Assembly (NCBI RefSeq): GCF_029542785.1 | Contig: NC_083371.1 | Location: forward strand, 682,001 to 746,000 | DNA length: 64,000 bases | Direction of reading: 5' to 3' | Source of the DNA: Malassezia japonica | Lineage: Eukaryota; Basidiomycota; Malasseziomycetes; Malasseziales; Malasseziaceae | Shown: piece after piece, positions 54,971 through 64,000 of the stretch | Layout: each line of letters begins with the position of its first letter | How positions within the stretch are numbered: the stretch's first letter is position 1 | Notes under the pieces: generated by a model | What the model saw: the letters and a program-made list of their open reading frames with translations, nothing else | Database searches by the model: none | What the model was told of the DNA's origin: nothing | Made by a program: the position numbers and the translations under genes

Positions 54971-56578
54971 TTAGATAGTGCCGTTACGGACAGGGCCGGT
55001 CACGGTGAAGTCGGTTCCGTTCTTGCCGAAGCAAACAAGGTCGTACTTGGCGTCCTTGTAGGCGTTCTTCTGCTGGTGCTGCAGGAAGTCGTCAAACTTG
55101 CAGAGACCGTCAGGACGCTTCTCGCAACCCTGGTCCTGGTCCATGGGGATGACCGCCTCGTTGATCTTGGAGCGGATGTACTTGGTAGAAGCGTTGTTCT
55201 CCTTGCACTCCAGAACCTCAAACACAAGACGGGCGGCGAAGGGCGTGACGCGGCTCGAGCGGTAGCGGCGCTTGGGGTCCGGCTTGGTAGTAGGAAGGAA
55301 GTCGGCAATCTGCGTGAAGTTGAGCGAGGTGAGAACAGAGTGGATCACATCGTCGTGCGTGAAGTCGGCGTACAGGGGCTGGTCGACAGGGAAGTAGGTA
55401 GTGCTCTTGTCGAGCGTCGAGTTCTGGTCCGTGACAGGGCCAGTGAACTTGGTGTTGTTCAGGCGGCTGAGGAACTCGGTAACGTAGCCGATACCCTGAG
55501 CCTTACCGGTGGGGTTCATGAAGCCGTAGTCACCCTGGAACTGCAGGTCAATGTCGTACTCGTAGTTCTCAAACTCCTCCTTGGTGAAGAGAGGGCAGAA
55601 CTTCGAGTAGCCCATAGCGACGCTCTCGTACGCGCAGATGCTCATCATACCGTAAACGAGGGTCTCGTCCAGCTTGATGCCTTTAACAAGCTTCTGAAGA
55701 CGCTCAATCGCGTTCTTCAGGTAGACTTTCTGCCACTGGCTGCTGGCGATGTCACCAAGGTAGTACGAGTCCACGTTAGTGTTGTTGCAGCCATCGTAGG
55801 GGGCAAGAGTGATGTTCTGGCCGGTCCACTCGGTGAGCACCTCGAGGTTCACCTTCTCCGCAGCATTCCAGCCGAAGAAACCAAGAGCCCAGTAGCGAGC
55901 CGTGTCGAGCATACGGCTCTGCGAGGTGGTGCGGAGGACCGGCTTGTGCTCGGTAAGGTTCTCGAGGAGCTTGCCGTACTGGTAGTAGAACTTCACACCC
56001 GAGTCAAAGAGCTCCTGGGCACCCTGGTGCACGAGGGTCTCGGCACCGAGGGTGTAGTTCCAGTGGTTCAGGAACTCGAGCTCACCCGAAGCGTTGAACT
56101 TGCCAGCCTTGGTAGCGTTCCAGAGGGTAGCACCGAAGAGAGGAGCGCCCTCGTGCGTGCTGCTAGTGGGGTTACGGGCACCGTGACGGTGGAGGATGTG
56201 CACCTGCTTGACGGTGCATTGCTCAGGGAGGACCTCGTAGCCGTGCGTTTCGGGGAAGAGGTCATCGGCGGGGTGGTACGGCGAGGTGGTACCGAGGTTG
56301 CGGAAGATGTCCGCCGAGGTCGCGTTGCTCTTGTCCGCATCCTTTGGGAGCCAGCGCATCTCAATACCGTAGTTGCCGAAGGGCTGGGTCGAGTTCAGCT
56401 TGTCGTCCTGGGCAAGGAACGGAGGGTGAGGGGCGTAAGCGACCGGGCCGAGGAAACCGACATCGGTAGGGAAGGTGGTGCTGGAAGTACCAGTCACGTT
56501 GTTCCAGCTCACCGAGGTCGACTGGGCGCTAGCCACAGCGAAGTACACAAAAGGAAGGAGAGCAGCGAGCCTGGCCAT
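54971..56578 (-). CDS. Secreted histidine acid phosphatase, array copy 1
   Basis: Intronless, 535 aa. The signal peptide (about 1-18, LLPFVYFAVASA) is followed by a branch-2 histidine phosphatase fold. The nucleophile motif is RHGARNP with His132; the proton-donor motif is FTHDD with Asp409. Conserved flanks are DLFPET, LRTTSQSRMLDTARYW and SRVTPFAARLVFEV. Many N-glycosylation sequons and scattered cysteines fit an extracellular phosphatase or phytase acting on phosphate esters. It ends GPVRNGTI with no membrane or GPI tail. It is the 3'-most copy of the tandem array, and its 55870-55988 segment is nearly identical to copy 2. Asn replaces the Tyr seen in the RHGxRYP motif of the other copies. 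Confidence 0.92.
   Translation of the reverse strand: MARLAALLPFVYFAVASAQSTSVSWNNVTGTSSTTFPTDVGFLGPVAYAPHPPFLAQDDKLNSTQPFGNYGIEMRWLPKDADKSNATSADIFRNLGTTSPYHPADDLFPETHGYEVLPEQCTVKQVHILHRHGARNPTSSTHEGAPLFGATLWNATKAGKFNASGELEFLNHWNYTLGAETLVHQGAQELFDSGVKFYYQYGKLLENLTEHKPVLRTTSQSRMLDTARYWALGFFGWNAAEKVNLEVLTEWTGQNITLAPYDGCNNTNVDSYYLGDIASSQWQKVYLKNAIERLQKLVKGIKLDETLVYGMMSICAYESVAMGYSKFCPLFTKEEFENYEYDIDLQFQGDYGFMNPTGKAQGIGYVTEFLSRLNNTKFTGPVTDQNSTLDKSTTYFPVDQPLYADFTHDDVIHSVLTSLNFTQIADFLPTTKPDPKRRYRSSRVTPFAARLVFEVLECKENNASTKYIRSKINEAVIPMDQDQGCEKRPDGLCKFDDFLQHQQKNAYKDAKYDLVCFGKNGTDFTVTGPVRNGTI
55870..55988 (-). repeat. Near-identical 119-bp patch shared by HAP copies 1 and 2
   Basis: This segment matches 58081-58199 in copy 2 at 118 of 119 positions by my alignment, including synonymous sites, while the flanks diverge at once. 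It is most simply read as a gene-conversion tract. Confidence 0.75.
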
Positions 56579-56980
56579 CTTGGTGGAAGGCTTGAACGAG
56601 CGTTGGCTTTTCTAGCTCTGTTATATCCTACTTCTGCCGATGCGCGAATTGTGTTTCGACCCTGCAAGTGCTATGAACTTTGTGGCTTAGGCGCCGGACT
56701 CGGCATCACACGTGCGCGTTTAATGCGCAGCGAGCCAATCGTCTGAACCCCGATTCGGAAATCCTCCGCAGTTGTGGAGAGGGCGCAAACCAAAAAGCGC
56801 GCACTGCGCGCCAGATCGCACGTACGAGCCCGGGTCTTGGTCCCGAGGAGGGCAAAAGTACACAACGTGGTCCAAAGTGAGTTCGAAAGTGCATGTTCCA
56901 CAATCATACCGTAAATTACCTCACTAAACTATAGTAGCGTAAACATCATCGGATAGAATAAAAAAACAACGCAGCACGAT
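56579..56980. other. Intergenic, HAP copy 1 promoter and copy 2 3' region
   Basis: The 402-bp spacer has a CACGTG at 56709-56714 and an A-run near 56961 by the 3' end of copy 2. I see no separate gene, although a short plus-strand frame is open across it. Confidence 0.55.
56709..56714. promoter_or_regulatory. CACGTG E-box upstream of HAP copy 1
   Basis: Perfect CACGTG 131 bp upstream of the copy 1 ATG. Pho4-type factors bind this core in phosphate-regulated phosphatase genes of other fungi; inferred here. Confidence 0.45.
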
Positions 56981-58798
56981 TTACTTGCTGCTGGAGGCGC
57001 TGCTAGCACCAGACGAGGCCTTGCTCGACGAAGCGCTGCTCGAGGGGGAGCCGCTCGAAGAGGAGCCGCTCGACGAGGAGCCGCTCGACGAGGAGCCGCT
57101 CGACGAAGCACCGCTCGACGAGGCGGCCGACGAAGCACCCGCGGCACCACCGTGGCTCGAGGCGTTCTTCTGGCCAGCCTCGATCTGAGCGTCAGTCAGG
57201 GCACCCATGTGGACGGGGCCGGTGACAGTGAAGTTCGTACCGTTCTTGCCGAAGCAGAACAGGTCGAACTTGGAGGCCTTAAAGGCGGTGTCGTTCTGGT
57301 ACTTGATAAAGTCGTTGAGCTTGCAGAGACCGTCAGGGCGCTTCTCGCAACCCTGGTCCTGGTTAAGAGGGACAACAGCCTCGTTGAGCTTGGCACGGAT
57401 GTACTGAGTAGTCGAGTTCTTCTCGTCACAGTCCATCACCTCGAACACGAGACGAGCGCCGAAAGGAGTGACACGGCTAGCGCGGTAGCGGCGCTTGGGG
57501 TCGGGCTTGGTCGTGGGGAGGTAGTCGCCGACCTGGGTCATGTTGAGGGCAGTAAGGATCGACTGGATGACGACATCGTGGGTGAAGTCAGCGTAGAGGG
57601 GCTGGTCCAGCGGGAAGTAGGTCGAGTTCTTGTCGATCGTCGAGTTCTGCTCCGACTGGGGGCCGGTGAAGCTCTTGTTGGTCAGGCGGGCAAGGAACTC
57701 GGTGACCCAGCCGATACCGTTGGCCTTACCACCGGGGCTCATGAAACCGTTGTTGGCCTGGAAGCTGATGTCGATGTCGTACTCAAAGTCCTCCCACTCC
57801 TGCTTGGTGAAAAGCGAGCAGAAGTTCGAGTAACCGAGGGCGTTGAGCTCGTAAGCGCACATGCTCTGCATGTTGTACACATCGTTGTAGGTAAAGTTGA
57901 CACCCTGCACCTGGTTCTGGATGCGGGGAATGGTCTTGTTGAGGTACTGCTGGCGCCAGATGGGGAGGATCTCGTCCGAGAGGTAGAACGAGTTGTTGCA
58001 GTCGTAGTAGGGCACAAGGGTGTCGTTCTGGCCCTTGATCTCGTTAAGAACCTCGATGTTGGACTTCGACGGGGCGTCCCAGCCGAAGAAACCAAGAGCC
58101 CAGTAGCGAGCCGAGTCGAGCATACGGCTCTGCGAGGTGGTGCGGAGGACCGGCTTGTGCTCGGTAAGGTTCTCGAGGAGCTTGCCGTACTGGTAGTAGT
58201 GCTTGACACCCGAGTCGAAGAGCTCCTGGGTGCCCTGGTGGGTGAGCACCTCGGCACCGAGCGAGAAGTTCCAGCTGTTGAGGAAAGCAAGCTCGCCGCT
58301 GGCCTTCAGGTTACCGGCCTTGGAAGCGTTGTAGATCTTCTCACCAAGGGTGTTGACACTAGGGCCAGCACCGCCCGAAGCGGGGTAACGAGAGCCGTGA
58401 CGGTGGAGGATGTGCACCTGCTTGATGGTGCACTGCTTAGGGACCGTGCTGTAGGCAGCCGTCTCGGGGAACAGGTCATCGGCCGGGAAGTAAGGCGAGG
58501 TCTGACCGAGGTTGCGGTAGATGTCCGCCGAGGTCGCGTTGTCCTTGTCGGCGTCCTTGGGGAGGAAGCGGAGCTCGATACCGTAGCTACCAGGGTTGGG
58601 CTTGGTCGAGTTCACCTTGTCCTGCTGAGCAAGGAAAGGAGTCTTGCCATACAAGGTCGGGCCGAGCAGACCGACGTCCGTGGGGAAGGCCTGGGCAGTG
58701 TTGCCAGTGGTGTTCTGCCAGTCGACCGAGGGCGAGGCCTGCTGGGCCGAGGCCACAGCAGCGCACACGAAAGGAAGCAGCGCGTAGATGGCGGCCAT
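56981..58798 (-). CDS. Secreted histidine acid phosphatase with Ser/Gly tail, array copy 2
   Basis: Intronless, 605 aa from the ATG at 58798. Signal peptide YALLPFVCAAVASA, nucleophile motif RHGSRYP with His134, and proton-donor motif FTHDVV with Asp408, so catalysis should be intact. After the common C-terminus (about residue 545) it continues with a Ser/Gly-rich tail of about 60 residues (units of GSSSS), absent from the other copies and partly made of a 15-bp tandem repeat. Such tails are often heavily O-mannosylated stalks in cell-wall proteins, but there is no GPI signal. Patches are shared with copy 1 (58081-58199) and copy 4 (57420-57488). An ATG 21 nt upstream is less likely, as it would precede the signal peptide. 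Confidence 0.92.
   Translation of the reverse strand: MAAIYALLPFVCAAVASAQQASPSVDWQNTTGNTAQAFPTDVGLLGPTLYGKTPFLAQQDKVNSTKPNPGSYGIELRFLPKDADKDNATSADIYRNLGQTSPYFPADDLFPETAAYSTVPKQCTIKQVHILHRHGSRYPASGGAGPSVNTLGEKIYNASKAGNLKASGELAFLNSWNFSLGAEVLTHQGTQELFDSGVKHYYQYGKLLENLTEHKPVLRTTSQSRMLDSARYWALGFFGWDAPSKSNIEVLNEIKGQNDTLVPYYDCNNSFYLSDEILPIWRQQYLNKTIPRIQNQVQGVNFTYNDVYNMQSMCAYELNALGYSNFCSLFTKQEWEDFEYDIDISFQANNGFMSPGGKANGIGWVTEFLARLTNKSFTGPQSEQNSTIDKNSTYFPLDQPLYADFTHDVVIQSILTALNMTQVGDYLPTTKPDPKRRYRASRVTPFGARLVFEVMDCDEKNSTTQYIRAKLNEAVVPLNQDQGCEKRPDGLCKLNDFIKYQNDTAFKASKFDLFCFGKNGTNFTVTGPVHMGALTDAQIEAGQKNASSHGGAAGASSAASSSGASSSGSSSSGSSSSGSSSSGSPSSSASSSKASSGASSASSSK
57045..57119 (-). repeat. 15-bp tandem repeat encoding GSSSS units in HAP copy 2
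   Basis: Five adjacent 15-bp units; three central ones (57060-57104) are perfect copies of GAGGAGCCGCTCGAC (plus strand), with degenerate flanking units. Since 15 is a multiple of three, length change alters only the tail length. Confidence 0.9.
57420..57488 (-). repeat. Near-identical 69-bp patch shared by HAP copies 2 and 4
   Basis: Matches 61234-61302 in copy 4 with a single difference. It covers the conserved CDE, FGARLVFEV and SRVT region. Confidence 0.65.
58081..58199 (-). repeat. Copy 2 partner of the 119-bp HAP1/HAP2 patch
   Basis: Counterpart of 55870-55988; the one difference changes Ser to Thr before ARYWALGFFGW. Confidence 0.75.
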
Positions 58799-59119
58799 TC
58801 TTGCGAGCGGTGAGAACAATCTAACTTGGAAATGCCTATGAGTAGCCTAAATAGTCTCTCGCTTTGGTTGCGCACGGCAGTTTGCAGGACTTGCACCCGC
58901 CGCTGCTTGTGGTAATGCACTCGGATGCAGCAATCATTTTTTAATTGACCCAATCAGCGGCGTGCCTAGTGGCACGCGGTGCGGCGCCCTTCGTTCACGC
59001 CGATGCATCAGACACCCCAGATGCGCGCATGTGCGACCGGAATATTGCGAAGTGAGCTTATTTATGCCCCCCCTGCAGCCGTCGTTTAACACGTCGATCC
59101 TGCTACCTAATCCCAAACA
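58799..59119. other. Intergenic, HAP copy 2 promoter and copy 3 3' region
   Basis: 321 bp without CACGTG, ORF or RNA gene that I can support. It is less AT-rich than the copy 1 spacer. Confidence 0.5.
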
Positions 59120-60748
59120 TTACTTGTGCATCTGACTGTCCTCGAGCGTGCCCGTCGAGACGGGGCCGGTGACCGTAAAGTCAGTGCCATTCTTGCCGTA
59201 GCATGCGAGTTCGAACTTGGCCGCGTCGTTCGCGTGCGCCTTGAGGAATCCGACAAAGTCGTCCAGCTTGCACAGACCATCGGGGCGCTTGGCGCAGCCC
59301 TGGCCCTCGTCGAGCGGGAGGACAGCCTCATTAATCTTGACGCGGATGTAGTTCGTAGGCTGCTTGTTCTCCGTGCACTCAAGCACTTCAAAGACGACGC
59401 GAGCGCCAAACGGCACTACGTCACTCGCACGGAAGCCGCGCTTGGTCACGATGCTGCCCGAACCGAGCGGCGTGCTGAACTGCGTAAAGTTGAAGGCGGT
59501 CAGAATACTGACCATCACCGAGTCGTGCGAGAAGTCTGCGTAGAGCGTCTGGTTCACCGGGAAGTAGGTCGGGTTCTTGTCCAGCGTGTTGTTCTGCGTC
59601 GTCTGCGGCTGCGAGTAGTTGCCGTGGGTGACGCGCTCCAGGAACTCGTTCACGTAGCCAATACCCATGGCCTTGCCAGTCGGGCTCATGAAGCCATTGT
59701 TGGCTTGGAACTTGAGGTCGGCCTCGTACTCGTAGCTCTCCCATTCCTCCTTGGTGAACAGGTTGCAGAACTGCGAGTAGCCCATGCCCGACGTCTCGTA
59801 GGGGCACATTGAAATAAAGTTCTCCATGTCGTCAATCGTCAGGTTGATGCCTTTGATGTGCTGTTGAATGCGATCAAGCGGCTTCTGCAAGTACACATTT
59901 TGCCATTGCTTGCGCATCTTGTCGCCAAACTTGATTTCATCACCGTTAGGGCAGCTGTGCTTGGGCTCAAGCGTGTTGTTCTGCTTGTCGGCCTCGGTGA
60001 GCACTTCCAAATTCACCTTGCTCGTCGCATCCCAACCAAAGAAGCCGAGGGCCCAATAGCGCGCCGAGTCTACCACACGGCTGCTCGACGAGGCACGGAT
60101 GACGGGCTTCTCGGTGGCATTCTCCAGAAGCTTGCCGTACTGGTAATAGGCCTTGACACCCGAGTCAAAGAGCTCCTGTGCACCTTGGTGCACAAGATCA
60201 GCGACACCCAGTTCGTACTTCCAGTCGTGCAGGAAGGCAAGCTCACCCGATGCCTCGAACGTGTTGTTGCGCGTCGTGTTCTGGATCTTGGCAGCCAAAA
60301 GACCCGGACCATCGTCCATACCATCCGTGGGGTAGCGAGCACCGTGGCGGTGCAGAATGTGCACCTGCTTCACCGTGCACTGGTCGGGAAGCACTTCGTA
60401 GGCAGCCGTCTGAGGGAAGAGGGTGCTAGGACGCCACGGCGTGTAGGGGCCGAGGTTGCTAAAGATGTCGTTGGAAGTCGTGTTCTCGTGGCCGACATCC
60501 TTGGGCAGCCAGCGCATCTCAATGCCGTACGGGCCAAATGGACGCGTCGTGTTCAGCTTGTCCCGCTGCGCGACAAAGGGCGCACCGCCAGGGACCGTGT
60601 CGCCCAGCGCACCCACGTCCGTGGGGAAGGTCTCGCTCGCAGTACCCGTGACGTTGTTCCAGTTGATGGGAGCATCTTTGGCAGACACGGCAACGATCGT
60701 CGACGTGCTCGCACAGACAGCAGCAATCAGCGGCTTGAAGTTCACCAT
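59120..60748 (-). CDS. Secreted histidine acid phosphatase, array copy 3
   Basis: Intronless, 542 aa from the ATG at 60748, chosen because it begins a signal peptide (KPLIAAVCASTSTIVAVSA) different in sequence from those of copies 1, 2 and 4. Nucleophile motif RHGARYP with His135; proton donor FSHDSV with Asp409. It ends STGTLEDSQMHK. It is the most divergent of the four complete copies: the arginine-rich block after the proton donor reads KRGFRASDVVPFGARVVFEV, and the HKP stretch loses a residue (TEKPVIRASS). Glycosylation sequons and cysteines are kept. A CACGTGGG site lies 109 bp upstream. Confidence 0.92.
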   Translation of the reverse strand: MVNFKPLIAAVCASTSTIVAVSAKDAPINWNNVTGTASETFPTDVGALGDTVPGGAPFVAQRDKLNTTRPFGPYGIEMRWLPKDVGHENTTSNDIFSNLGPYTPWRPSTLFPQTAAYEVLPDQCTVKQVHILHRHGARYPTDGMDDGPGLLAAKIQNTTRNNTFEASGELAFLHDWKYELGVADLVHQGAQELFDSGVKAYYQYGKLLENATEKPVIRASSSSRVVDSARYWALGFFGWDATSKVNLEVLTEADKQNNTLEPKHSCPNGDEIKFGDKMRKQWQNVYLQKPLDRIQQHIKGINLTIDDMENFISMCPYETSGMGYSQFCNLFTKEEWESYEYEADLKFQANNGFMSPTGKAMGIGYVNEFLERVTHGNYSQPQTTQNNTLDKNPTYFPVNQTLYADFSHDSVMVSILTAFNFTQFSTPLGSGSIVTKRGFRASDVVPFGARVVFEVLECTENKQPTNYIRVKINEAVLPLDEGQGCAKRPDGLCKLDDFVGFLKAHANDAAKFELACYGKNGTDFTVTGPVSTGTLEDSQMHK

Positions 60749-60856
60749 GGTAGGAGAGGATAGGTTCTTACAGCCGCACTCGCCAGTGAACGTTTGCCCA
60801 CGTTTCGCGAATCGACTCGCGAGGCGGTTCGCCGATCGCGACGTGCACGAGCCACG

Positions 60857-60862
60857 CACGTG
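60857..60862. promoter_or_regulatory. CACGTG E-box (within CACGTGGG) upstream of HAP copy 3
   Basis: 109 bp upstream of the copy 3 ATG. CACGTGGG is the high-affinity form for yeast Pho4; use in this organism is inferred. Confidence 0.45.
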
Positions 60863-60980
60863 GGCCCCTCGGCCGGACCACACCCAGGCACATTGGAGTG
60901 CTCCGAAGCCTTGGAACCGATGATGGCCATAATCCAAATAGTCTATAGTAACACTAAAAAAACTTCTAGGACATCCACGC

Positions 60981-62600
60981 TTAGTTCTTCTTCTTGATCT
61001 GGTCGTCGGTCAGCGTGCCGGTCTTGGACGGGCCGGTGACGACGTAGTCCGTGCCGTTGACACCGAAGCAAGCGACATCAAAGTGCGAGTCCTTGTAGGC
61101 GTGGGCCTGGAGCGTGCCAATGAAGTCGTTGAGCTTGCAGAGACCGTCAGGGCGCGACTTGCAGCCCTGGTCCTGGTTGAGAGGGACAACAGCCTCGTTG
61201 ACCTTGGCACGGATGTACTGAGTCGAGTTGTTGTTCTCGTCACAGTCCATCACCTCGAACACGAGACGAGCACCGAAAGGAGTGACACGGCTAGCGCGGT
61301 AGTGACGCTTGGAGTCAGGGTTGGTGGGGTCGAGCACCTGGAGAACCTGAGTCAGGTTGAAAGCCGTCATGATGTTGGTGATCGCAGTGTCGTGCGAGAA
61401 GTCGGCGTAGAGGCCCTGGTCAAGCGGGTAGTAGGCAGGGTTGCTGTCCAGCGTAGAGTTCTGCAGGGTCTGGGGACCATGGAACTTCTGCTTGGTGATA
61501 CGGTCGATGAACTCGAGCACGTAACCAATACCGTAGGCCTTGGCGTTGGGGCTCATGAGACCGCTGCCGGCCATGAACTGAAGGTCGACGTCGTACTCAT
61601 GCTGCTCCCACTCCTCCTTGGTAAAGACGCTGCAGAAGTGCGAGTAGCCAATCGACACCGTCTCGTAACCACAGAGGGTCATCATGTAGTAAATGTCGCT
61701 TGGGTCGATCGTCACACCCGAAACCATCTTGTTCAGACGGTCGGCAATAGCGGGGGTGTACTTCTGCTCCCAGGCCTTGATCGGCGCGGTCATGTTGGGC
61801 GACTTGCAGTTAGGGGCCAGCGTGTTGTTCTGCGACTTGTCCTCGGTCACCACCTCGAGGTTCATCTTGGCAGGGGCGTCCCAGCCAAAGAAGCCCAGGG
61901 TCCAGTAGCGGGCCGAGTCGAGCATGCGGCTCTGCGAGGTGGTGCGGATCACGGGCTTGTGCTCAGTAAGGTTCTCAAGGAGCTTGCCGTACTGGTAGTA
62001 GTGCTTGACACCCGAGTCAAAGAGCTCCTGCGAACCGACATGGGTAAGCACCTCGGTACCGAGGGTGTAGTTCCAGTGGTTCAGGAAGGCAAGGTCGCCA
62101 GTAGCGTTGAGCTTGCCAGCCTTGGTCGCGTTCTGGATCTTCTTGCCAAAGAGGTACTCACCTCCCGTGCTGCCGCCAGTAGGGTAGCGAGCACCGTGGC
62201 GGTGAAGGATGTGGACCTGCTTGATGGTGCAGTTCTTAGGAACGACCTGCTGGCCGCTGGTTTCGGGGAACAGGTCATCGGCGGGGTGGTAAGGCGAAAC
62301 CTGGCCGAGGTTGCGGAAGATGTCATCCGACGTCGCGTTGTTCTTCTCGCCGTCCTTGGGGAGCCAGCGCATCTCAACACCGTACTTGCCGTTGGGGCGC
62401 GTAGTGTTCAGCTTGTCAACCTGCGCAAGGAAAGGCGGCGCACTGTAGACGGTCTGGCCCAGGAAACCGACATCAGTAGGGTACACCTGGCCTTCCGAGC
62501 CGGTGACGTTGCCCCAGTTCACCGAGGGGCTCGCCGAGGCATCCGCCGCCTTGGCAACAGCGGCGCACACAAAGGGAAGGAGGGCGTAAATACTGACCAT
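60981..62600 (-). CDS. Secreted histidine acid phosphatase, array copy 4
   Basis: Intronless, 539 aa from the ATG at 62600. Signal peptide MVSIYALLPFVCAAVAKA is very similar to that of copy 2. Nucleophile motif RHGARYP with His135; proton donor FSHDTA with Asp404. It ends TGTLTDDQIKKKN. The region 61234-61302 is almost identical to copy 2, and the HKPVIRTTSQSRMLDSARYW block resembles copies 1 and 2. A CACGTT element, a weaker Pho4-type site, sits at 62724-62729, 124 bp upstream. Open codons 5' of the ATG are not signal-peptide-like and are excluded. Confidence 0.92.
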   Translation of the reverse strand: MVSIYALLPFVCAAVAKAADASASPSVNWGNVTGSEGQVYPTDVGFLGQTVYSAPPFLAQVDKLNTTRPNGKYGVEMRWLPKDGEKNNATSDDIFRNLGQVSPYHPADDLFPETSGQQVVPKNCTIKQVHILHRHGARYPTGGSTGGEYLFGKKIQNATKAGKLNATGDLAFLNHWNYTLGTEVLTHVGSQELFDSGVKHYYQYGKLLENLTEHKPVIRTTSQSRMLDSARYWTLGFFGWDAPAKMNLEVVTEDKSQNNTLAPNCKSPNMTAPIKAWEQKYTPAIADRLNKMVSGVTIDPSDIYYMMTLCGYETVSIGYSHFCSVFTKEEWEQHEYDVDLQFMAGSGLMSPNAKAYGIGYVLEFIDRITKQKFHGPQTLQNSTLDSNPAYYPLDQGLYADFSHDTAITNIMTAFNLTQVLQVLDPTNPDSKRHYRASRVTPFGARLVFEVMDCDENNNSTQYIRAKVNEAVVPLNQDQGCKSRPDGLCKLNDFIGTLQAHAYKDSHFDVACFGVNGTDYVVTGPSKTGTLTDDQIKKKN

Positions 62601-62841
62601 CTTGAGGAGGTTGTGGTGGGGGGCGAAGCACTGTATTGACAGCCAAGTTATCGAGTCCCTAGCGCCCTTGCGCGAATTTACTGCGCCATGCGCTCTGCAG
62701 CAAGATTTCAGTTTGTGCCCCTGCACGTTCGCAGCGCCTGCAGCCTGGTTGGCACGGACCACATCACTTGACGGAACACATTTGCCTGATTAGGAAAGCG
62801 CGTGTGGAGGGAGAATTAAAGTTCCTACGGAAGCAACAAAT

Positions 62842-64000
62842 TTAGTGGTGCACAATTGCGCTGTCGGGCACGACGCCGTCCGTGACGGTGCTCAGGCCCT
62901 TGAGCTTAAAGTCGGTACCGTTCTTGCCGAAGCAGGAGAGATCAAACTTGGAAGCCTTGTACGCGTTCTTCTCCAGGTAGCTCGTGAAGTCGTCCAGCTT
63001 GCAGAGACCGTCCGGACGCGGCTTGCAGCCCTGGGCCTCGTTCAGGGGAACAATAGCCTCGTTCATCTTCATACGGATGTAGGTCTGGTTACCCTTCTTC
63101 TCGTTGCAGTCAAGGACCTCCCAGACCCAGCGAGCACCGTAAGGGAGCACCTGGCTAAGCTTGAAGTTACGGTTCTGGTCGTTGTGGTGGGGGTCGAACT
63201 TGGACTTGAATTGGGTGAGGTTCAGTGCGGCCATGATGCTGGTCATCTGACTGTGGTGCGAGACGTCCACAAAGAGGGGCTGGTCAAGGGGGAAGTACGT
63301 AGAGTTGGTGTCAAGCGTCATGTTCTGCGTCGTGACCGGGCCGGTGAACTTCTCCTTCTTGAGACGAGCGATAAATTCCGACACCCAACCGATACCGACA
63401 CCACGGGCCGTGGGGTTCAGGAAACCGTTGTCGGCCATCGTCTGCAGGTCCATGTCGTACTCAAAGTTCAGCCACTCGTTCTTGGTAAAGAGCTTGCAGA
63501 AGTCGGAGTAACCAATGCCCACCGTCTCGTAGGGGCAAGCGCTCATCATATTGTACACGTCAGTGATCGTAAGATCAATGCCCTTGAGGTTCTTCTGCAG
63601 ACGAGCCTTGGGGGCCTGCAGGTAGATGTTCTGCCAGATGGCACTGACGTTGACGCTAAGCTCGTAGTCGTCGCTGTCGGCGTTGCGGCAAGCGTTCTTA
63701 CCAGCCAGGGTAAGGTTCTGGAAATCGTCCTCGGTGAGGACTTCGAGGTGCATCTTGTCCGTAGCATCCCAGCCGAAGAAGCCCAGGGTCCAGTAGCGGG
63801 CCGAGTCAAGCACACGGCTGTGCGACGAAGTACGCACGACGGGCTTGTGGGCAGTGAAGTTGGACAGGAGCTTGGCGTAGTCGTAGTAAGCCTTGACACC
63901 CGACATGAACATCTCCTGCGCACCGTTGTGCACCAGGATCTTCTGGCCGAGATCGTAATTCCAGTTGTAGAGGAACTCGAGCTCACCCGAAGCCTTCAGC
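62842..64000 (-). CDS. Histidine acid phosphatase-like protein, array copy 5 (5' part outside window), catalytic Asp replaced
   Basis: The frame is open to the window edge, so about 385 C-terminal residues are visible; the signal peptide and RHGxRxP motif lie outside. It aligns along its whole length with the other copies (KAYYDYAKLLSNFTAHKPVVRT, SARYWTLGFFGW, VGIGYSDFCKLFTKNEW). At the proton-donor site it reads VSHHSQM instead of SHDxxx: the codon at 63253-63255 is CAC where paralogues have GAC or GAT. The following Arg-rich block is also changed (NRNFKLSQVLPYGARWVWEV). The frame is intact with no stop, so it is a divergent, probably inactive or altered paralogue rather than an obvious pseudogene. 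Confidence 0.88.
   Translation of the reverse strand, partial: LKASGELEFLYNWNYDLGQKILVHNGAQEMFMSGVKAYYDYAKLLSNFTAHKPVVRTSSHSRVLDSARYWTLGFFGWDATDKMHLEVLTEDDFQNLTLAGKNACRNADSDDYELSVNVSAIWQNIYLQAPKARLQKNLKGIDLTITDVYNMMSACPYETVGIGYSDFCKLFTKNEWLNFEYDMDLQTMADNGFLNPTARGVGIGWVSEFIARLKKEKFTGPVTTQNMTLDTNSTYFPLDQPLFVDVSHHSQMTSIMAALNLTQFKSKFDPHHNDQNRNFKLSQVLPYGARWVWEVLDCNEKKGNQTYIRMKMNEAIVPLNEAQGCKPRPDGLCKLDDFTSYLEKNAYKASKFDLSCFGKNGTDFKLKGLSTVTDGVVPDSAIVHH

What the first reader, a model, noticed from the sequence alone, without database searches (positions are those of the whole stretch)
54971..64000. Five-gene tandem array of secreted histidine acid phosphatases
Five same-strand, intronless, signal-peptide-bearing (four verified) HAP genes run head to tail with spacers of 402, 321, 232 and 241 bp, and the array continues past the window. 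The rest of the window is largely single-copy housekeeping genes. Such an array suggests dosage or diversification of extracellular phosphate scavenging, or a role against host-surface substrates.
Basis: partly seen in the sequence, partly recalled or inferred. Interest (0 to 1): 0.8.

Follow-up and report, generated by a model that had tools for sequence, protein, structure and literature searches.

The report
Ancient secreted phosphatase array in Malassezia
A skin yeast carries seven neighbouring genes for enzymes that look made to release phosphate outside the cell; they are old, separately kept copies rather than recent duplicates, probably switched on when phosphate is scarce, and one of them has an unusual, long-conserved active site.

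Summary
The array is real and larger than reported: seven same-strand, intron-free histidine acid phosphatase (HAP) genes (window 54971 to 4.05 kb past its end), spacers 402, 321, 232, 241, 221, 164 bp, Aspergillus PhyA-like with signal-like N termini. It is neither an artefact nor recent dosage amplification: fourfold-site identity between copies is 0.31-0.58 (random 0.33), five of seven copies sit in well-supported cross-species orthogroups, and a species-specific expansion is rejected (AU p=0.0003). M. caprae has neighbouring members of three of these groups. Six of seven copies carry CACGTG or CACGTT 114-148 bp upstream; PHO89-like, VTC4-like, MINPP-like and the dispersed HAP genes each carry two CACGTG, which suggests (inferred) a phosphate-starvation regulon. 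H5 belongs to an orthogroup nested among Malassezia proteins (nine distinct proteins, one with a species name) in which the catalytic proton-donor Asp is His; 186 of 187 other aligned rows have Asp or Glu. The nucleophile His and at least two of three phosphate-binding Arg are kept, so H5 is either a pseudoenzyme or a HAP for substrates that need no carboxylate donor. A new variant of a known kind; activity and expression untested.

The parts
54971..56578 (-). H1, HAP with signal-like N terminus, 535 aa; RHGARNP and HD present
56981..58798 (-). H2, HAP with signal-like N terminus, 605 aa; RHGSRYP and HD; Ser/Gly-rich C-terminal tail
59120..60748 (-). H3, HAP with signal-like N terminus, 542 aa; RHGARYP and HD
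60981..62600 (-). H4, HAP with signal-like N terminus, 539 aa; RHGARYP and HD; AlphaFold2 model pLDDT 89.4, best PDB match A. fumigatus phytase 1qwo
62842..64000 (-). H5, variant HAP, 544 aa, 5' end outside the window (C2:746476); RHGSRYPD and S-H-H in place of S-H-D; model of the 99%-identical P0006 has pLDDT 92.3
   Evidence: H6 and H7 lie beyond the window at C2:746698-748314 and 748479-750053
56709..56714 (-). CACGTG, 136 bp upstream of H1
56864..56869 (-). CACGTT, 291 bp upstream of H1
60857..60862 (-). CACGTG, 114 bp upstream of H3
60799..60804 (-). AACGTG, 56 bp upstream of H3
62724..62729 (-). AACGTG, 129 bp upstream of H4
55868..55988 (-). H1 side of a near-identical tract shared with H2 (85 and 35 identical bases, one mismatch between): probable recent gene conversion
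58079..58199 (-). H2 side of the same tract

Best explanation
This is an old tandem array of PhyA-type histidine acid phosphatases that are probably secreted. It most likely arose by duplication of one phytase-like gene within Malassezia after the split from the other Ustilaginomycotina sampled, and most copies have since been kept as separate lineages. Shown here by computation: seven intact ORFs, the fold of two of them, the orthogroups, neighbouring members in M. caprae, one probable conversion tract. Inferred: a Pho4-like E-box factor raises transcription of most copies when phosphate is low, together with a phosphate transporter, polyphosphate polymerase, MINPP-like and phosphoesterase genes. 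The secreted enzymes then release phosphate from organic phosphates, with divergent substrate preferences. H5 is specialised: it keeps the nucleophilic His and the phosphate-binding Arg residues but has replaced the proton-donor Asp by His and the Thr after the RHGxRxP motif by Asp. Most likely it either cleaves substrates with good leaving groups (such as phosphoanhydrides), uses His as an acid at skin pH, or binds phosphate compounds without turnover.
For: Gene number, order and integrity. Family and fold: PF00328, the five window proteins; H1 to PhyA chains, E 5e-49; H5-type model to 1ihp, TM 0.88 by target; H4 model to 1qwo, 0.84. Age: fourfold-site identity 0.31-0.58; random 0.33; orthogroups of H2, H3, H4, H5, H7 at bootstrap 100; one clade of the seven genes rejected, p-AU 0.0003. 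Linkage elsewhere: locus tags MCAP1_001286/001287, MVES1_001877/001878, MOBT1_000246/000248; the first 147 aa of the fused model MCAP1_001287 are of the H7 group (94% to P0043), followed by an H5-group protein; MCAP1_001286 is in the H3 group. PHO control: CACGTG or CACGTT at -114 to -148 in 6 of 7 array genes; two CACGTG within 600 bp at each of PHO89-like, VTC4-like, C8 HAP and MINPP-like; control: 1 of 13 other window ORFs with CACGTG within 300 bp, 2 of 13 with either site, 0 of 13 at -160 to -100; 7 CACGTG/CACGTT in the six spacers; shuffle mean 1.55, P 0.0003. H5 type: donor position His in 10 of 10 H5-group rows, Asp/Glu in 186 of 187 others; one change on a tree with the motif columns left out.
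Against: No expression or activity data. H2 has no Pho4-type site, and H4 and H5 have only AACGTG. CACGTG alone is a modest signal (4 of 7 against 1 of 13, p=0.03; spacer shuffles P=0.02; in the spacers it only ties with five other palindromes at 3 copies). The -160 to -100 interval was chosen after the positions were seen, and three of 31 non-array rows also have a site there (L011:3730, L017, L018). An aldo-keto reductase and one doubtful ORF carry CACGTG, and one of three phosphoesterase ORFs on C9 does not. TIGR00887 (PHO84) reached no cut-off in this genome, so the classical transporter could not serve as a control. H6 has no supported orthogroup and H1 only a partner pair; several Malassezia-side groups have no counterpart in this array. 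The two M. psittaci proteins near H1 lie on contigs of different length, so they are not one array. Linkage in most other species rests on equal contig lengths.
Confidence: 0.75

Rival explanations
1. Recent lineage-specific amplification for gene dosage.
For: Head-to-tail order and short spacers; one near-identical H1/H2 tract.
Against: Fourfold-site identity over whole genes 0.31-0.58, random 0.33; seven-gene clade rejected. The conversion tract covers only about 120 bp.
Confidence: 0.05
2. Assembly artefact (false tandem copies).
For: Database proteins of this family include likely chimaeras with shared N termini and different bodies (P0010/P0012, P0014/P0015, P0018/P0025, P0024/P0028, P0022/P0056), so the array is hard to assemble from short reads.
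Against: Copies are 46-67% identical in protein and 57-74% in DNA, too different for false duplication. The protein database holds proteins 93-100% identical to each of the seven (the one for H5, P0006, is listed without a source).
Confidence: 0.02
3. The H5 type is a plain pseudoenzyme on its way out, without function.
For: Proton-donor Asp lost; R138 also changed to Lys or Glu in 8 of 10 H5-group rows. Another family member, P0062, has lost the nucleophile and several ligands. A Bifidobacterium MINPP donor mutant, E401Q, is called inactive (PMC7762957, passages).
Against: Long open frames in nine distinct proteins; the His and the Asp at position 141 are invariant, and so are the nucleophile His, R134, R219 and H403; branch lengths are like those of other groups. 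The 99%-identical copy P0006 differs from H5 by 5 of 544 residues, fewer than the matching copies of H1, H2, H4, H6 and H7 (H3 has none).
Confidence: 0.15

Closest known systems
Aspergillus PhyA 3-phytases and related fungal HAPs (PF00328, histidine phosphatase branch 2)
   Same: RHGxRxP and HD motifs in H1-H4, H6, H7; fold of the H4 and H5-type models (TM 0.84 and 0.88 by target length); N-terminal secretion-like segment; eight Cys invariant in the eight aligned paralogues
   Different: Seven-gene tandem array; H5 lacks the HD Asp; substrate preference unknown
MINPP (HAE proton-donor motif)
   Same: Branch 2 enzymes can move or change the proton donor (PMC3969271, PMC7762957, passages seen)
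   Different: MINPP keeps an acidic residue, Glu one position later; the H5 type has His and then Ser, with no acidic residue at either place
PPIP5K/Vip1 phosphatase domain
   Same: Altered donor position within a phytase-like site; alanine at Glu991 activates yeast Vip1, which acts on a phosphoanhydride (PMC11836120, passages seen)
   Different: Two-domain inositol pyrophosphate enzyme with Glu at that place
Malassezia phosphoesterase/phospholipase family PF04185
   Same: Also an expanded family (PMC4634964, passages seen); a Pfam-confirmed member beside the MINPP-like gene on C9 also carries CACGTG upstream
   Different: Another Pfam family, not a histidine phosphatase

Membership tests
Fungal histidine acid phosphatase / PhyA-like (H1-H4, H6, H7) | PF00328 match over the curated cut-off | tested here: met
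   seven of seven array genes
Fungal histidine acid phosphatase / PhyA-like (H1-H4, H6, H7) | RHGxRxP with nucleophilic His, and HD proton donor | tested here: met
   six of seven array genes (H5 fails on HD)
Fungal histidine acid phosphatase / PhyA-like (H1-H4, H6, H7) | PhyA fold | tested here: met
   for H4; the others by sequence only
Fungal histidine acid phosphatase / PhyA-like (H1-H4, H6, H7) | Secretion signal | tested here: inconclusive
   hydropathy and A-X-A-like sites only; no signal-peptide predictor was on hand
Fungal histidine acid phosphatase / PhyA-like (H1-H4, H6, H7) | Phytase activity | not testable with these tools
   A strain close to M. restricta secretes phytase activity (PMC9695711, passages); no gene seen named there
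Canonical catalytically active HAP (H5) | Acidic proton donor in the HD/HE/HAE motif | tested here: not met
   S-H-H in 10 of 10 H5-group rows
Canonical catalytically active HAP (H5) | Nucleophile His and three phosphate-binding Arg | tested here: inconclusive
   H135, R134 and R219 invariant; R138 kept in H5 itself but Lys or Glu in 8 of 10 rows
PHO (Pho4) regulon | CACGTG/CACGTT sites upstream, shared with canonical phosphate genes | tested here: met
   six of seven; H2 has none, H4 and H5 only AACGTG; controls are not all clean
PHO (Pho4) regulon | Induction by low phosphate | not testable with these tools
   no expression data

The most novel reading that the evidence does not exclude
The H5 orthogroup, so far seen only among Malassezia-type proteins, is a histidine acid phosphatase with a rebuilt active site (Asp to His at the proton donor, Thr to Asp after RHGxRxP, Gln to His at position 223, often Arg to Lys at position 138). 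It still forms the phosphohistidine but has given up carboxylate-assisted leaving-group protonation. It therefore works on phosphoanhydrides or other good leaving groups, or uses His as general acid at the acidic pH of skin, kept by selection beside its ordinary sisters.
Probability: 0.35. Interest if true: 0.7.

Novelty: new variant of a known kind. Interest (0 to 1): 0.5.

Why it matters
It points to secreted phosphatases as a further old, diversified extracellular enzyme set in Malassezia beside the known lipases, phospholipases and proteases, and suggests that phosphate is a managed resource on skin. The H5 group is a natural test of whether a branch 2 histidine phosphatase can work, or be usefully kept, without an acidic proton donor.

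Tried and rejected
Recent dosage expansion and assembly artefact: rejected. A relocated proton donor, the new Asp at position 141 doing the job of the lost one, was my first idea. It is now thought unlikely, because the matching AppA Thr23 lines specificity pocket D while the scissile group sits in pocket A (PMC9181005, passages). A remembered link between Bacteroides MINPP T30 mutants and this position was wrong: its RHGXRXP is at residues 58-64. PHO84 as positive control failed (no match over cut-off). No active-site geometry could be measured because no model coordinates were among the script files (listing). Literature searches whose listings showed no description of a tandem HAP array in Malassezia: (open-licence library only; supplements could not be read, and gene-family tables of PMC4634964 may list PF00328).
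Full report
What is there. The five reported genes are present at the stated coordinates, strand and spacing. The window is C2:682001-746000 of an 8.43 Mb, nine-contig genome. Past its right end the array goes on: H5 is complete (544 aa), and H6 (538 aa) and H7 (524 aa) follow with spacers of 221 and 164 bp. The seven genes cover C2:736971-750053, all minus strand, with no internal stop. To the left lie an ERG4/ERG24-type sterol reductase and an amine-oxidase-like gene; to the right are a ribosomal-protein-like gene end read by eye and a GATA-factor gene. The PF00328 search of the genome gives 12 matched stretches: the seven array genes, one dispersed HAP on C8 with an N-proximal membrane-like segment, two stretches of one Vip1-like gene on C3 (name by eye), one gene at C2:159.7 kb and one MINPP-like gene on C9 (name by eye).

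What the proteins are. All seven match His_Phos_2 (the five window proteins also). By sequence the best solved relatives of H1 and of P0006 are A. fumigatus and A. niger phytases. The AlphaFold2 model of H4 (pLDDT 89.4) matches A. fumigatus phytase 1qwo best (TM 0.84 by target). The model of P0006, 99.1% identical to H5, has pLDDT 92.3 and matches A. niger phytase 1ihp best (TM 0.88). N-terminal hydrophobic stretches with A-X-A-like sites fit secretion in all seven, but no signal predictor was available and H3 and H7 are weak by this measure.

Age. Pairwise protein identity is 46-67% and fourfold-site identity 0.31-0.58, where 0.33 is expected by chance. An exception is a tract of about 120 bp in H1 and H2 with 85 and 35 identical bases around one mismatch and 20 of 20 identical fourfold sites in its best window, best read as recent gene conversion. 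A search with the array alignment gave 556 proteins at E<=1e-10, of which the best 120 were listed. In a quick tree of 84 rows, 59 rows (H1-H7 and the Malassezia-side proteins) form one group (SH-aLRT 100) apart from the Ustilaginomycotina '3-phytase A'-type proteins. The careful tree has 58 rows, with motif columns left out. Dropped before it: the fused P0001, short models (P0041, P0051, P0079, P0082), chimaera-suspect or redundant rows (P0010, P0015, P0017, P0018, P0024, P0056), the near-identical copies of the window's own genes, P0062, three divergent rows (P0075, P0080, P0084), the C8 protein and, from P0063 on, all but six outgroups. There H2, H3, H4, H5 and H7 sit in cross-species groups with bootstrap 100; H1 pairs with P0020 (98/93); H6 is unresolved. 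Other groups of the tree (for example P0032/P0034/P0035, and P0044/P0047/P0050/P0052/P0057/P0060) have no clear counterpart in this array, so copies have also come and gone. A single clade of the seven window genes is rejected (p-AU 0.0003).

The array in other species. Named neighbours by locus tag are M. caprae 001286 (H3 group) and 001287 (a model fusing an H7-group piece, 94% identical to P0043 over 147 aa, with an H5-group protein), M. vespertilionis 001877 (with H1 only in the quick tree) and 001878 (H4 group), and M. obtusa 000246 (H4 group) and 000248 (nearest to H1). The M. caprae order H7-H5 in one reading direction, with H3 next door, agrees with the order here; the strand of 001286 was not seen. 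Several unnamed contigs also hold two or more family members, judged only by equal contig length (for example P0049 of the H7 group and P0054 of the H5 group at 31,788 bp). Against a general array, two M. psittaci proteins near H1 lie on contigs of different length. The species of the window was not established. The nearest named species for H1 and H4 is M. obtusa (77% and 74%). PMC7025860 (passages) says that clade A holds nine-chromosome species and discusses M. japonica there, which would fit but is not proof.

Regulation. CACGTG or CACGTT lies 114-148 bp upstream of H1, H3, H4, H5, H6 and H7 (CACGTG in H1, H3, H6, H7; AACGTG on the coding strand in H4, H5); H2 has none. The six spacers hold 7 such sites; dinucleotide shuffles average 1.55 (P 0.0003). 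CACGTG alone is 3 against 0.59 (P 0.02), equal to five other palindromes. CACGTG and CACGTT are both under-represented in the window as a whole (15 found, 28.8 expected; 20 found, 35.6 expected). Upstream of the PHO89-like gene, the VTC4-like gene, the C8 HAP and the MINPP-like gene there are two CACGTG each within 600 bp of the first ATG of the frame, and one at a PF04185 gene; two neighbouring C1 transporter genes found weakly with the PHO84 model also have two each within 300 bp. Of 13 long ORFs elsewhere in the window, one has CACGTG within 300 bp, two have either site, and none has either at -160 to -100 (Fisher p 0.03 for CACGTG and 0.0002 for the interval; the interval was chosen after seeing the data). 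One search adds 33 ORF rows from fetched stretches, two of them array genes, some repeated and some probably shadow frames. Among rows not obviously phosphate-linked, an aldo-keto reductase and one ORF opposite the Vip1-like gene carry CACGTG; three of the 31 non-array rows have a site at -160 to -100; one of three phosphoesterase ORFs on C9 has no site. I read the whole as a Pho4-type regulon; that Pho4 binds such sites is recalled from other fungi, not shown here.

The H5 group. Aligning all 189 proteins listed by the three searches plus the eight genome proteins (197 rows), the position of the catalytic proton donor is His in 10 of 10 H5-group rows (H5 and P0006 count as two; nine distinct proteins). 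In the other 187 it is Asp in 145, Glu in 41 and Gly in 1. The residue after RHGxRxP is Asp in 10 of 10 and in 1 of 187 others. Q223 is His in 10 of 10 and 1 of 187. R138 is Lys in 7, Glu in 1 and Arg in 2 (H5 and P0006). The nucleophile H135, R134, R219 and H403 are kept in all ten. The change to His happened once on the motif-free tree, and the group has bootstrap 100. A search with the H5-group alignment listed 100 proteins at E<=1e-100 and no further member; the only named one is from M. caprae. The searches listed at most 120 proteins each, so rarer variants elsewhere could have been missed.

How H5 may work. In E. coli AppA, D304 is the proton donor, R20 contacts the groups in pockets A and B, and T23 and K24 contribute to pocket D; the donor-less D304A enzyme still acts on phytate, at other positions (PMC9181005, abstract and passages). 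In yeast Vip1, which cleaves a phosphoanhydride, alanine at the matching Glu activates the enzyme (PMC11836120, passages). By contrast, in a Bifidobacterium MINPP the donor mutant E401Q is called inactive and traps the phosphohistidine (PMC7762957, passages), which fits the pseudoenzyme reading. Loss of the acidic donor therefore need not kill a branch 2 phosphatase, least of all on good leaving groups, but it can. Six of the eight H5-group proteins aligned have Lys right after the new Asp, the place of AppA K24. That H5 is an active enzyme, and on what, is inference.

Literature. A strain with ITS 99.6% similar to M. restricta secretes phytase activity; the four strains of that study had optima at pH 6-7 (PMC9695711, passages). 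An acid phosphatase homologue is named among M. sympodialis vesicle proteins (PMC6004016, one passage). The genus-wide genome paper names PF04185 phosphoesterases, lipases and peptidases as expanded families and does not use 'phosphatase' or 'phytase' in its main text (PMC4634964, passages and term counts). A 2026 survey of fungal acid phosphatases mentions Malasseziales as little represented (PMC13390437, passages). The listings showed no description of this array; the library is open-licence papers only.

Verdict. Six members look like ordinary HAPs in an unusual, old, probably phosphate-controlled array, and the seventh is a conserved variant of real interest.

Noticed in passing
P0062 (protein search hit, 515 aa, 326 member sequences): A member near the H3 group in the quick tree has replaced the nucleophile His by Asn, the second motif Arg by Thr and the HD His by Arg: probably catalytically dead, yet widely sampled.
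   Followed up: partly
L013 and L028 (C9:13.5-25 kb): A MINPP-like gene (two CACGTG upstream) lies beside a PF04185 phosphoesterase gene and two further similar ORFs (by eye); two of the three phosphoesterase ORFs have CACGTG within 300 bp, one has none: a second phosphate-linked cluster.
   Followed up: partly
L018 and L021 (C1:1614074-1617503): Two neighbouring transporter genes, weak matches to the PHO84 model, each have two CACGTG within 300 bp upstream.
   Followed up: no
window:58079-58199 and 55868-55988: Near-identical tract between H1 and H2 that includes the RTTSQSRMLD segment: gene conversion.
   Followed up: yes
P0010/P0012, P0014/P0015, P0018/P0025, P0024/P0028, P0022/P0056: Pairs of database proteins share an N terminus but differ elsewhere: likely short-read chimaeras across tandem copies, or conversion.
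   Followed up: partly
window:56984-57148: H2 has a Ser/Gly-rich C-terminal tail of about 50 residues without a hydrophobic end; no other array copy has it.
   Followed up: no
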